Shown here: positions 7,479 to 25,693 of the stretch, in pieces
Position numbering within the stretch: the stretch's first letter is position 1
Layout: each line of letters starts with the position of its first letter
Assembly (NCBI GenBank): GCA_016931225.1
Contig: JAFGFE010000044.1
Location: forward strand, 1 to 32,965
DNA from: Candidatus Zymogenaceae bacterium
Lineage (GTDB): Bacteria; Desulfobacterota; Zymogenia; Zymogenales; Zymogenaceae
DNA length: 32,965 nt
Direction of reading: 5' to 3'
Made by a program: the position numbers and the translations under genes
Notes under the pieces: model-generated
Databases searched by the model: none
Told to the model about the DNA's origin: nothing
The model's input: the letters and a program-made list of their open reading frames with translations, nothing else

Positions 7479-9857
7479 ATGTATTTTAGAAACGATGGAA
7501 AAGAAATGACATTCATATTTCAAAATAGTACACAAAACAAAATTTTTGAAGGTCTGTATAGATATGTCGGTAGGCAGTCAGCGATGTTTTATCTTGATTT
7601 ATGTAAGTTGTTGGGTGATGAAATCGAGATAGAGACAAAAACACATGTTGTAGCTCATTTAGCAAGAGAGATAGAAGGAAATATAATCGACCTATTAATT
7701 CCTGATACTGTTAAAACAAGTGACAATACAAAGAAGCAGCAGTTAAGTGATATTTTAAATACTCATGGTATTGACAATGATTTATTAGAAAAGGAATTGG
7801 AACTATTAGTACAAGATGCTGATGAAAAAAGTAAATACTCTAAGAAACAAAAAATAAAAGATATTTTGGAGATTTACGATATTGATAATGATGTATTAGA
7901 AAGATTGTGGTTAAGTTTTACAGACAAAGGTTTGCATAAATATGCTCATAGAAATTCTCAACTTCCACCTAGATATTATGATAGTGAATTCAAAGAAATA
8001 ATTGAGAAATTTGAGTATCTATTAATTGAACTTATTAGAATATTTGAGGAACATTATGAAAAGATTTTTTTTAAAAGGATTGATGAAATCTTGAAGAAAG
8101 AGAATCCAAATGAAATTGACTTGACAATATTGAGGGAGAAAATCCCAAATACTTTGATGGCTCTTAACTATTTCTTTGAAAAATGCGAGAACCCAGAATG
8201 GTTGAAATTTAAGGACTTTATAAAGTACTTCCAATATCCACCTATTATTGGTGAAAGAGCATTATGGAAAGCATCGGGTTACTTAGCTAGAGTGGCGCAA
8301 AAAATTCCAGAAAAAATATGCGAAATCATAGTTGAAGTAATACCAGAAACAAACAATGAATTTATTCATAAAGATTTTATTGAAGCAGCTTTAAAAATGA
8401 ATGCAAAATATGCAGAAAGAATAGCAAAGAGAGAGGAAGAATGGATAAATAAAACTAAATACATTGGTTATGCGTTACCTTATGGATATGGTGAATTAAT
8501 AAACCATCTTTGCTCTTTAGGAGTAAAAGATACGACTTTAAAATTAGTGAAAAGTCTTTTTGGGATAACAATTGAAGGGGATAGTGAAGATATTGAACAA
8601 AAGAGAAAACTTGATAATAAATTAAAAATAACTGCAAAATGTGAAGATTTTATATATCAAAAAACATTACGTCTAATACACAAATCGCTAGTTGAAATAG
8701 CTGATATCCAAGCTATTGAGCTTTTCACAAATAAACTAATTAAATACATTGAATCACCAATATATTTTCATAGAGAAACTATCGAGGAGAGTGATCAGAA
8801 TTTTTCAGAAGAAATTGGGAATTTTCTAGTTGAAACGGTTCGAGATATGGCTGAGTATTGTATTGAGATAGGAAAAAAATCTTTTGAGGATATCTATAAC
8901 TATTTCAATTTAAAAGATAATGTGATTTTTATAAGAATCAACTTGCATCTCTTATATGAAAATCCTGATTTAGCAGGATCTTTGTTACTTGAGAACATAT
9001 TAAATAAAGAGTTATTTGATGATAATGAGTGTCATCATGAATATTCACGTCTTTTAGAAAGATATTTTGGTAAATTGAATGGCCAACAAAAACTTGTAGT
9101 ATTTGATTGGATTGAGTCAGGTCCGTGTGACTATGAAACATATAGGAGAAAAAGAAGAGAAAGGTGGAATGAAGAAGCAACAGAAAATGATTTTATTGAA
9201 TATAAAGAGACGTGGCAGCGTGACAAATTTGTCTTAATAGAGAAATATCTAAATGAAGAACGAGAAAAGAAATATGTAGATCTTATTGATAAGTATGGTA
9301 AATCTCTACACCCAACTTTCAGATTTTATTCGGATTCAGGATTTATTGATGAAAGAAGTCCAAAAAATGCTGAAGATTTGTTAAAGTTTACAACTCCACA
9401 GCTGGTTGAATATTTGAATGATGTTGATTTTGGAGAAAGGGATTTTTGGAGTGAACCCTCACCTGAAGGCTTGAGAAATGAAATCACGGAAATGGTTCTT
9501 ATCGATACATATCAATTTTCAAAAGACGCAAAGATTCTAATTGATTTGAGATTCCCTATTTATTTAATTGGTTTTATTCGTGGATTCAATGAATATTTTA
9601 AAAAAAGTAAAGATGACATCAAAGGTGAGATAAAATTTAATTGGTCCACTGTTTTAGTTTTATTGGAGAGCATATCTCAAAAACACGATCCTGATATTCT
9701 TTCACAGAGTAAAAGATTTCACGAGGATAATGATTGGAATTGGGCGAAGAAAGAAGCTATTAGACTTATTGAATCTGGATTAAAATCAAATTGCATATTT
9801 CCTATTCCTATGGAATTTCGTGATATTGTTTGGAGGATAATAACAACCTTAGTTTAA
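7479..9857 (+). CDS. Large helical protein of unknown function, N-terminal part (ends at in-frame TAA)
   Basis: This 792-residue frame is AT-rich and almost entirely alpha-helical, with no membrane segments. I recognise, from memory of large uncharacterised bacterial proteins of roughly 1,100-1,300 residues, the N-terminal pattern (FEGLYRYVGRQSAMFY, then HVVAHLAREIEGNIIDLL at about 57-73), a YAHRNSQLPPRYYDSEF block, IPNTLMALNYFFEKCENP and WKASGYLARVAQKIPE. The family has no function known to me. The start may be the ATG at 7479 or, better placed after a GGAAAAGA motif, the ATG at 7506. The frame stops at TAA 9855-9857, but the same frame continues openly for another 374 codons, and the following residues match the expected next part of the family. 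It is therefore probably one gene broken by a point mutation, or a natural two-part gene. Confidence 0.8.
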   Translation: MYFRNDGKEMTFIFQNSTQNKIFEGLYRYVGRQSAMFYLDLCKLLGDEIEIETKTHVVAHLAREIEGNIIDLLIPDTVKTSDNTKKQQLSDILNTHGIDNDLLEKELELLVQDADEKSKYSKKQKIKDILEIYDIDNDVLERLWLSFTDKGLHKYAHRNSQLPPRYYDSEFKEIIEKFEYLLIELIRIFEEHYEKIFFKRIDEILKKENPNEIDLTILREKIPNTLMALNYFFEKCENPEWLKFKDFIKYFQYPPIIGERALWKASGYLARVAQKIPEKICEIIVEVIPETNNEFIHKDFIEAALKMNAKYAERIAKREEEWINKTKYIGYALPYGYGELINHLCSLGVKDTTLKLVKSLFGITIEGDSEDIEQKRKLDNKLKITAKCEDFIYQKTLRLIHKSLVEIADIQAIELFTNKLIKYIESPIYFHRETIEESDQNFSEEIGNFLVETVRDMAEYCIEIGKKSFEDIYNYFNLKDNVIFIRINLHLLYENPDLAGSLLLENILNKELFDDNECHHEYSRLLERYFGKLNGQQKLVVFDWIESGPCDYETYRRKRRERWNEEATENDFIEYKETWQRDKFVLIEKYLNEEREKKYVDLIDKYGKSLHPTFRFYSDSGFIDERSPKNAEDLLKFTTPQLVEYLNDVDFGERDFWSEPSPEGLRNEITEMVLIDTYQFSKDAKILIDLRFPIYLIGFIRGFNEYFKKSKDDIKGEIKFNWSTVLVLLESISQKHDPDILSQSKRFHEDNDWNWAKKEAIRLIESGLKSNCIFPIPMEFRDIVWRIITTLV

Positions 9858-9890: not shown

Positions 9891-10982
9891 TTGATAGACG
9901 AAAGAATAATGGACCTTGTGACATCTTCAATTAATGTCACTGAGGGGATAGCAATGCATTCAATGTTTGAGTATGCCCGCTGGGTTATGAGAAATGATTT
10001 ACTATCTAAAAATATTAAAAACGAAAATGATCTAAGTTTCGAGTCTGTTATTGAAGTAAAAGATTACATTGAAAAGTATCTAAAGTTTGAGCATAAAGGT
10101 TCTTTAATTATTCAATCCGTTATAGGTCAAGAATTTGGTTGGATAGTACGTATTGATCCTTACTGGGCGAAAAACAACCTTAAAAGAATATTCAATAAGG
10201 ATGATGAGATTTTATGGAGAGCTGCTTGGAATGGGTACATAAAGTTTTCACCACCATATTTTGAAGTTTTTGAAATACTTAAAGAAGAGTATAAAAGAGC
10301 TATCTCAATTATTCCAAACTACCTTCAAACTAGTTCTGAAGACTCTCCATTTATAGATAAATTGGTAAAACACATAATGTATTTCTATTGGCATGGGAAG
10401 ATTGTTTTAGAGGACAATCTGTTTATAAATTTTTGGGAGATAGCAAATGACAAAATAAGAAAAAATGCAATAAGTTTTATAGGCTTAAGTTTGTGGCATT
10501 TAAAAGAAAAGGCATCTAGGAATATAATCCAGAGACTAAAAAAACTTTGGGTTTGGAGAGCAAAAAAGATACAAGAAAGAATTCAAGGAGATGAAGATTA
10601 TCAATATAGCCTAGAAACCGGTTCTTTTGGTTGGTGGTTTTGTTCAAAACAGTTTTTTAATGATGAGGATTCTGAGTGGGTGTTTAATAGTCTGTTGAAT
10701 GCAATAAAGGCATCTGACAAGATTGATGACATACGTGAAGTAGTTGAAGTATTGGCTGAAGTTGCTAATGAAAATGAGGGTATCGTATTGAAGTGTCTTG
10801 ATGAAATTTTAAGGAATTCTCGAGATATTGTAACACTGCTAATAGTACAGGATAATGTATATAAAATACTGGACTCAACATTGAAATCAGAAAACGAAGG
10901 AATTCAAAAAGAAGCAAAAAACTTAATAAATTATTTAAGAACAGAAGGATTTGATGAAAAATTTAAAACACTATTAAAGTAA
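9891..10982 (+). CDS. Large helical protein of unknown function, C-terminal part
   Basis: This 363-residue frame lies in exactly the same reading frame as the previous entry, and a single TAA (9855-9857) separates them. Open sequence begins at 9858. The segment SSINVTEGIAMHSMFEYARWV near the start, followed by LIIQSVIGQEFGWIVRIDPYWA and AAWNGYIKFSPPYFEVF, corresponds to the C-terminal third of the same large-protein family as I remember it. Independent translation could start at TTG 9891 or ATG 9909. A strong ribosome-binding motif, AAGGAGG at 9861-9867, lies immediately after the stop, but the nearest well-spaced ATG (9877) runs straight into a TAA. No function is known. Confidence 0.7.
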   Translation: MIDERIMDLVTSSINVTEGIAMHSMFEYARWVMRNDLLSKNIKNENDLSFESVIEVKDYIEKYLKFEHKGSLIIQSVIGQEFGWIVRIDPYWAKNNLKRIFNKDDEILWRAAWNGYIKFSPPYFEVFEILKEEYKRAISIIPNYLQTSSEDSPFIDKLVKHIMYFYWHGKIVLEDNLFINFWEIANDKIRKNAISFIGLSLWHLKEKASRNIIQRLKKLWVWRAKKIQERIQGDEDYQYSLETGSFGWWFCSKQFFNDEDSEWVFNSLLNAIKASDKIDDIREVVEVLAEVANENEGIVLKCLDEILRNSRDIVTLLIVQDNVYKILDSTLKSENEGIQKEAKNLINYLRTEGFDEKFKTLLK

Positions 10983-24736: not shown

Positions 24737-25693
24737 TCAGTTCGGGTCCAGCACCACCGACGAAGGATTATGCTCCTTGAGCCAGTAGTAGAACTCGTTC
24801 TCGATCTCCCGTACCTCCCGATGCCGGGGAACGAGGCTTCCCGCGGGGATCATCTCGGTTTCGAAGTCCGCCGGCCCATCGGCCGCCATGCGTATCGTCA
24901 CACGGGCGATGCGTTTTCCCTTCTCGTCGGCCGATACCATCACCGCATCCCCCGCCGCCATCGGGACGGGAAGGGGCTGGGGTTCGCTGGTGGTGATAAT
25001 CAGGTCGATGCCGTCGACCTCGTCGGCGAGGCCATAGACGTCCTGCCTGTCCATCGCCGCCAGGAGAACCACCAGGTCGCATTGCCCCTCGATCATTTCA
25101 ATCGCCGTTTCCGCGGCGCTTGCGGGATCGGTAATGATGAAGGTATCGAAGTCGTGGGCGCCGGAGGCGCCTTCCCCCATTACGCCGATGAACCCCACCG
25201 ATACGCCCCCGATCTCGACGATCGTGTACGGTTCGAAGGCCGGCATGAAGGTGTCGGCCGAGAGGAGGTTGGCCGACACCAGGGGGAGGGAGTACTCATG
25301 TTGCAGTGCGGTGAGGAAATCCAGCCCCGCCGCCAGGTCGTTTGGGCCGACGTTCACCACATCATAGCCCATCTCGAAGAACCCACGGGAGACCAGTCCC
25401 GCGGCGATCTTGTCCTCCTCCTCGCTGGTGGGGAAGAGGCCGGTCCGCCGGAAGAGAAAATTACCCGCATCGACCACGATTACATTTTCGTAGCCGTTTT
25501 CCATGTCCTCGATCAATGTTGCCCGCCGGGCGAGCCCGCCCAGTTTTTTGTTTTCTCAGGCGCAGGGGAGGACCTCACCCCAGGTATCGCAGGAATGGAC
25601 GATGGTGATCGACGCCGCCAAGGCACGCACAGGCAGGATGACCCCGGCCGCAAGCAGGGCGCACACCATGATGACAAGCAGTCTTCGGTTCAT
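24737..25693 (-). CDS. Probable periplasmic UshA-like selenoprotein (in-frame TGA as Sec46)
   Basis: From ATG 25693 (ribosome-binding site GAGG) the frame encodes a signal peptide (MNRRLLVIMVCALLAAG, then LPVRALA), then SITIVHSCDTWGEVLPCA, a TGA at 25558-25556, and ENKKLGGLARRATLIEDM. It continues without a break for 259 further residues to 24737. The part after TGA resembles the metallophosphoesterase domain of UshA/5'-nucleotidase proteins (IVVDAGNFL, GYDVVNVGPNDLAAGLDFL, LPLVSANLL, GVSVGFIGVMG). Homologues I recall have PCGC here, so TGA sits at a cysteine position, giving Cys44-Ala-Sec46. A SECIS-like hairpin lies 12 bases after TGA. The usual metal ligands look lost (DTHG is DTWG, GNHE is GPND), so it may be a redox rather than a phosphatase protein. 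The total is 318 residues. Alternative: a pseudogene or a sequencing error. Confidence 0.75.
25526..25543 (-). promoter_or_regulatory. Candidate bacterial SECIS element
   Basis: Starting 12 bases after the in-frame TGA, reverse-strand CTGGGC (25543-25538) pairs with GCCCGG (25531-25526) in a six-base stem (one G-U pair) around the loop GGGCUC. The loop begins with GG about 18 bases after the TGA. This is the distance and loop character expected of bacterial SECIS hairpins bound by SelB. Confidence 0.6.

What the first reader, a model, noticed from the sequence alone, without database searches (positions are those of the whole stretch)
24737..25693. Probable new selenoprotein: UshA-like periplasmic protein with Cys-Ala-Sec
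The frame runs from a signal peptide through an in-frame TGA (25558-25556) into a long conserved domain without other interruption. The flanking motif LPCA-TGA-ENKKLGGLARRA matches the PCGC...LGGLARRA motif that I recall from homologues, placing TGA at a conserved Cys. A six-base-pair hairpin with a GG-starting loop lies 12 bases after TGA. A caller that treats TGA as stop would truncate the protein and lose its signal peptide.
Basis: partly seen in the sequence, partly recalled or inferred. Interest (0 to 1): 0.85.

Follow-up and report, generated by a model that had tools for sequence, protein, structure and literature searches.

The report
Short haem-less UshA-like selenoprotein
This gene almost certainly reads an internal stop signal as the rare amino acid selenocysteine, giving an exported protein shaped like a nucleotide-cleaving enzyme that has lost its cutting residues but kept a reactive selenium; it is a short, previously unmodelled branch of an already known selenoprotein family.

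Summary
Confirmed. On the minus strand, 25693-24737 encodes a 318-residue protein with a signal-peptide-like start and one in-frame TGA (25558-25556, Sec46, motif LPC-A-U). All three other genomes of the class carry the orthologue (47-52% identical) with TGA at that codon, in a conserved gene order (HAD - GHL13-like - this gene - mobA - mobB - amidohydrolase). The genome has selA, selB, tRNA-Sec and a selD that itself contains a TGA. The position is Sec in 59 and Cys in 11 of 70 aligned homologues, nothing else. A 7-bp hairpin with a GGCU loop starts 12 nt after the TGA; pairing exceeds codon choice in Sec members but not in Sec-less ones.

The family is known: NCBIfam NF041198 'UshA-like (seleno)protein', CxU, listed since 2008. 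The window gene is an unmodelled short branch: no tetrahaem tail, 208 bits against a cut-off of 275, and one of eight canonical 5'-nucleotidase metal or catalytic residues kept. A full-length tetrahaem CxU paralogue sits in the same genome. Most likely it is an exported selenol/thiol redox protein on a dead metallophosphoesterase scaffold; substrate and partner are unknown. It is real and easily mis-annotated, but a variant of a known kind.

The parts
24737..25693 (-). Selenoprotein gene, 318 codons with TGA as Sec46, plus terminal TGA
   Evidence: orthologues L019, L020, L021; NF041198 match
25616..25693 (-). Probable signal peptide, residues 1-26 (cut after ALA), no lipobox
   Evidence: read from the translation by eye; orthologues start alike
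25562..25564 (-). Codon of Cys44, the Cys of the C-x-U motif
   Evidence: Cys in all 4 clade members and all 28 haem-bearing members, absent in 9 of the other 38
25556..25558 (-). In-frame TGA read as selenocysteine 46
   Evidence: TGA in all orthologues; column is Sec or Cys in 70 of 70
25526..25543 (-). SECIS-like hairpin: 7-bp stem, loop GGCU
   Evidence: fits the bacterial rule quoted in PMC13188914
27196..27849 (-). HAD-family phosphatase, first gene of the conserved order
   Evidence: Pfam HAD_2; same place in L060, L061, L062
25833..27185 (-). GHL13/PgaB-like protein just upstream
   Evidence: Pfam GHL13; same place in L060, L061, L062
24100..24723 (-). MobA-like molybdenum cofactor guanylyltransferase, just downstream
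   Evidence: same place in L060 and L061
23609..24103 (-). MobB, molybdopterin-guanine dinucleotide synthesis protein B
   Evidence: same place in L060 and L061
22555..23433 (-). Amidohydrolase (Amidohydro_2), last gene of the conserved order
   Evidence: same place in L060 and L061

Best explanation
The TGA at 25558-25556 is read as selenocysteine by the genome's own SelA/SelB/SelD/tRNA-Sec machinery, guided by the hairpin that starts 12 nt after the codon. The product is an exported 318-residue selenoprotein with the fold of the N-terminal metallophosphoesterase domain of 5'-nucleotidases, forming a haem-less branch of the UshA-like CxU selenoproteins. Because nearly all metal-binding and catalytic residues of the phosphoesterase are lost while Sec46 is kept, the working group is most likely the selenol of Sec46, paired with Cys44, acting in thiol/selenol redox chemistry outside the cytoplasm. 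Electrons would pass to or from a separate partner; in the tetrahaem relatives the candidate partner is the C-terminal cytochrome domain of the same chain. Shown: frame, TGA conservation, Sec machinery, conserved hairpin, loss of ligands, conserved gene order. Predicted: fold. Inferred: actual Sec insertion, export, redox activity, partner and substrate.
For: Sec genes: tRNA-Sec, SelB, SelA, SelD with its own TGA. TGA kept in every orthologue of the class and common across the phylum. Position is Sec 59, Cys 11, other 0 of 70. Hairpin pairing 5.58 of 7 in Sec members against 4.10 expected from synonymous codons (sd 0.13), and no excess in Sec-less relatives, 3.50 against 3.76; 88.9% of cells paired against 27-53% when slid. 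Fold: pLDDT 95, Z 33.6 to E. coli UshA. Only 1 of 8 canonical residues kept. CxU fused to four haems in the paralogue and relatives. Redox-type neighbours of other members.
Against: No protein-level proof of Sec. The hairpin overlaps conserved codons, and only one pair shows a double change, in four closely related sequences. Cys44 is missing in 9 of 70 relatives, which weakens an obligatory C-x-U pair family-wide. The mob genes give no direct redox link. No partner is identified.
Confidence: 0.75

Rival explanations
1. It is a selenoprotein, but Sec46 serves as a metal ligand or nucleophile in a remodelled active site, for example acting on a sulfur compound, rather than as half of a redox pair.
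For: Sec is kept even where the CxU cysteine is lost. The fold is shared with SoxB (Z 32.6), which by general knowledge hydrolyses a Cys-bound sulfur adduct. D36 is kept in all four clade members.
Against: All other canonical metal ligands are lost in the window protein and Cys44 is kept throughout the clade. The relatives are fused to cytochromes.
Confidence: 0.2
2. The TGA is a true stop: a pseudogene, a sequencing error, or a gene that starts at the TTG at 25516 and makes a 259-aa protein.
For: A standard caller gives the 259-aa ORF. Raw reads were not available.
Against: The same TGA in three other genomes, codon-like substitution on both sides, Sec machinery, and a hairpin constrained beyond codon choice.
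Confidence: 0.03
3. TGA is reassigned to another amino acid such as Trp in this lineage.
For: None beyond the open frame.
Against: Sec-less homologues have Cys there. A dedicated tRNA-Sec, SelA, SelB and SelD exist. The gene itself ends with TGA at about the length at which two orthologues end with TAA or TAG.
Confidence: 0.01
4. It is an active nucleotidase or phosphatase with an accessory Sec.
For: Predicted fold and distant sequence similarity to 5'-nucleotidases.
Against: Seven of eight canonical metal or catalytic positions are changed and the C-terminal substrate domain is absent.
Confidence: 0.03

Closest known systems
NF041198 UshA_like_PCGU, 'UshA-like (seleno)protein' (COG0737, CxU; PMC2398784, PMC9312934, PMC13188914)
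   Same: N-terminal domain homologous (E=2.8e-61), Sec at the same position, CxU motif, LGGLAR block, SECIS-like hairpin at the same distance
   Different: About 200 residues shorter, no tetrahaem C-terminus, 207.7 bits against a cut-off of 275, x is A/V/I/G instead of G, more metal-site residues lost, no lipobox
NF049981 UshA-like (seleno)protein family 2 (CxxU)
   Same: Short, haem-less, same fold family, Sec at the aligned position
   Different: CxU rather than CxxU; 55.5 bits against a cut-off of 140, matching only the first 92 of 262 positions; lies apart in the tree
L002, the paralogue in the same genome (G000:C40:16536-18212)
   Same: CxU selenoprotein of the same family, same hairpin
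   Different: Full NF041198 member (447 bits), four CXXCH haem motifs, lipobox-like start, 31-32% identical
E. coli UshA, CD73 and SoxB
   Same: Predicted fold of the N-terminal metallophosphoesterase domain (Z 32-34 over about 279 residues)
   Different: No Sec/Cys site in the hydrolases; the window protein lacks the C-terminal domain and nearly all metal and catalytic residues

Membership tests
Bacterial selenoprotein (general) | In-frame TGA conserved in orthologues, aligned with Sec/Cys in homologues | tested here: met
Bacterial selenoprotein (general) | selA, selB, selC and selD in the genome | tested here: met
Bacterial selenoprotein (general) | SECIS hairpin right after the TGA | tested here: met
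   rule from PMC13188914. No dedicated bSECIS predictor was available
Bacterial selenoprotein (general) | Selenium present in the protein | not testable with these tools
   needs 75Se labelling or mass spectrometry
NF041198 UshA_like_PCGU (equivalog) | Score over the curated cut-off (275 bits) | tested here: not met
   207.7 bits; orthologues 179-192
NF041198 UshA_like_PCGU (equivalog) | Match over the full 519 positions, including the haem-binding tail | tested here: not met
   positions 17-269 only; no CXXCH in the protein
NF041198 UshA_like_PCGU (equivalog) | C-x-U motif | tested here: met
   CAU here; CVU, CIU and CGU in orthologues
NF049981 UshA-like family 2 | Score over the curated cut-off (140 bits) and CxxU motif | tested here: not met
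   55.5 bits; motif is CxU
5'-nucleotidase / metallophosphoesterase | Fold of the N-terminal domain | tested here: met
   (predicted model)
5'-nucleotidase / metallophosphoesterase | Two-metal site and catalytic His (DxH, GD, GNHE, H217, GHxH) | tested here: not met
   1 of 8 kept (residue roles from general knowledge of E. coli UshA)
5'-nucleotidase / metallophosphoesterase | C-terminal substrate-binding domain | tested here: not met
   318 aa in all; the model aligns to the N-terminal part of the nucleotidases; no Pfam hit

The most novel reading that the evidence does not exclude
A metallophosphoesterase scaffold has been turned into a stand-alone exported selenol oxidoreductase that serves molybdenum-enzyme maturation (mobA/mobB operon), with Sec46 as its one indispensable catalytic residue.
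Probability: 0.15. Interest if true: 0.55.

Novelty: new variant of a known kind. Interest (0 to 1): 0.36.

Why it matters
Homologues of this protein are widespread in the phylum (a match in 217 of 395 sampled genomes; this includes some ordinary nucleotidases), and the catalogue passages read here assign the UshA-like selenoproteins no function. The short branch falls below the NCBIfam cut-off, so a pipeline that relies on that model would probably truncate it at the TGA and lose its signal peptide. The alignment also makes a testable point: across the family the phosphoesterase residues decay while Sec or Cys at position 46 is kept without exception, so the useful assay is for selenol chemistry rather than nucleotidase activity.

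Tried and rejected
Pfam gave no hit for the window protein. Rfam at a lax threshold gave only a weak miRNA match far below its cut-off, so it neither supports nor opposes the hairpin. The genome-contig scan with the protein alone brought only three distant named relatives (L057-L059, 33-37% identical), all of the tetrahaem type. The mobA/mobB linkage was sought beside about 40 other fetched stretches around family members and not found, so among those examined it is specific to this class; one short relative sits next to an FdhD gene (L097), too little to build a molybdenum link on. Pseudogene, sequencing error, TTG restart and TGA reassignment were considered and rejected (see rivals). Literature searches found no functional study of the UshA-like selenoproteins in the library held. 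A first version of the hairpin test grouped sequences wrongly and crashed; one search replaces it.

Full report
Observation. The minus strand 25693-24737 encodes 318 residues and a terminal TGA, with one internal TGA at 25558-25556. A standard caller starts after it, at a TTG, and reports 259 aa. The N-terminus reads as a signal peptide ending ALA|AS (by eye).

Is it selenocysteine? The genome (3.73 Mb, 99% complete) holds tRNA-Sec (77.1 bits, gathering 47; anticodon TCA), SelB (371 bits, cut-off 242), SelA (599 bits, cut-off 268) and SelD (357 bits, cut-off 125), whose own frame contains a TGA. All three other genomes held for the class have the orthologue, 47-52% identical, each with one TGA at the same codon; one of them, L021, is cut off at a contig end. 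Differences from the orthologues concentrate at third codon positions both before and after the TGA (for example 3, 3, 8 before and 10, 8, 21 after, against L020), which fits translation of both sides in this frame.

Homologues. In a sample of 395 genomes of the phylum, 217 have a match, and most of the better matches carry one internal TGA; the weaker ones include ordinary nucleotidases without it. I aligned the proteins from fetched loci. In the 70 that belong with the UshA-like (seleno)proteins, position 46 is Sec in 59 and Cys in 11, never anything else. Cys44 is present in all 4 window-clade and all 28 haem-bearing members but absent in 9 of the other 38. Sec is therefore better conserved than its partner Cys.

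SECIS. The strand after the TGA folds into a 7-bp stem with loop GGCU starting 12 nt after the codon. [quoted passage not shown] PMC13188914). The stem overlaps the LGGLAR codons, so I tested it against synonymous recoding with each gene's own codon usage. Sec members pair 5.58 of 7 positions, expected 4.10 (sd 0.13, highest of 1000 draws 4.60). Sec-less relatives pair 3.50, expected 3.76. For the window gene alone, 2.6% of recodings reach 7 of 7. On 27 distinct CxU sequences, 88.9% of cells pair, against 27-53% when the partner is slid; one stem pair changes from U-A to G-C, in four sequences. Relatedness of the sequences tempers these numbers.

What the protein is. The match to NF041198 'UshA-like (seleno)protein' is strong (E=2.8e-61) but covers only positions 17-269 of 519 and scores 207.7 against a cut-off of 275; the orthologues score 179-192. 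The same genome holds a full member, L002 (447 bits), whose C-terminus carries Cytochrome_C554 with four CXXCH motifs and whose start looks like a lipobox (by eye). In the tree the four window-clade proteins form one fully supported clade. It lies among tetrahaem CxU proteins, with moderate support for the enclosing branches (SH-aLRT 88 and 92), which suggests that the haem tail was lost. Other haem-less CxU members exist elsewhere (L101, L102, L103, L105), so being haem-less is not unique to this clade.

Fold and active site. AlphaFold2 with the 74-row alignment (Sec entered as Cys) gives pLDDT 95 and pTM 0.90. The model matches the N-terminal domain of 5'-nucleotidases (1ush Z 33.6, rmsd 2.3, 279 residues) and SoxB (2wdc Z 32.6, rmsd 2.5, 279 residues). 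Of eight canonical positions (DxH, GD, GNHE N and H, H217, both in GHxH; roles from general knowledge of E. coli UshA), the window protein keeps only D36; the others read W, N, P, N, A, S, P. The four clade members each lose at least six, L021 being read only as far as its contig goes. The C-terminal substrate domain is absent. Hydrolase activity is therefore unlikely.

Context. The order HAD phosphatase - GHL13-like - this gene - mobA - mobB - amidohydrolase is the same in L060 and L061; L062 shows the upstream part as far as its contig goes. None of these five neighbours turned up beside the other family members fetched. Operonic neighbours of other members include thioredoxin, DsbD-like, rhodanese, Fe-S and SBF-permease proteins, which fits a redox role but does not identify one.

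Mechanism. Best reading: an exported selenol protein on a dead phosphoesterase scaffold, with C44-U46 as a redox pair and a separate electron partner where the relatives may use their own haems. Sec insertion is strongly supported by comparison; redox use is inference. The main rival keeps Sec but makes it a metal ligand or nucleophile.

Novelty. The family is known: COG0737 UshA-like with CxU was listed from ocean metagenomes in 2008 (PMC2398784) and appears in later catalogues (PMC9312934; PMC13188914). No functional study was found in the library searched. The new element is a short branch below the curated cut-off, in a conserved mob operon, found only in one small class among the genomes searched.

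Noticed in passing
L067 (own genome, C33:20044-20973): The genome's selD frame contains one TGA, so SelD is probably itself a selenoprotein.
   Followed up: no
L036, L034, L097, L104, L096, L099, L106, L079: Family members that keep the TGA/Sec but have lost the CxU or CxxU cysteine (for example ADSGU, DPVGU, PLRLU): Sec without its Cys partner.
   Followed up: partly
L088, L090, L093: CxxU-type members lie near SBF (sodium/bile-acid-type) permease genes, and L088 also has a DsbD-like gene beside it.
   Followed up: no
L079, L080, L081, L082, L083, L108, L109: A recurring small gene (cluster of 7 by BLAST, probably the HD-domain/YfbR-like 5'-deoxynucleotidase family that 7 scanned neighbours match) sits next to haem-less, mostly CxxU-type members.
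   Followed up: no
L105:2505-4560, + strand: Tandem pair of UshA-like selenoprotein genes, one haem-less with CAU and the next with CGU and four haem motifs.
   Followed up: no
L090, L092, L093, L094, L089: Sec-less branch with a C-x-x-C-C-like motif (for example PCGTCPDGGDNGGLP) and no SECIS-like pairing: natural Cys forms of the family.
   Followed up: partly
window 7479-9857 and 9891-10982, + strand: Two long neighbouring ORFs (792 and 363 aa) without a Pfam match at 1e-3.
   Followed up: no
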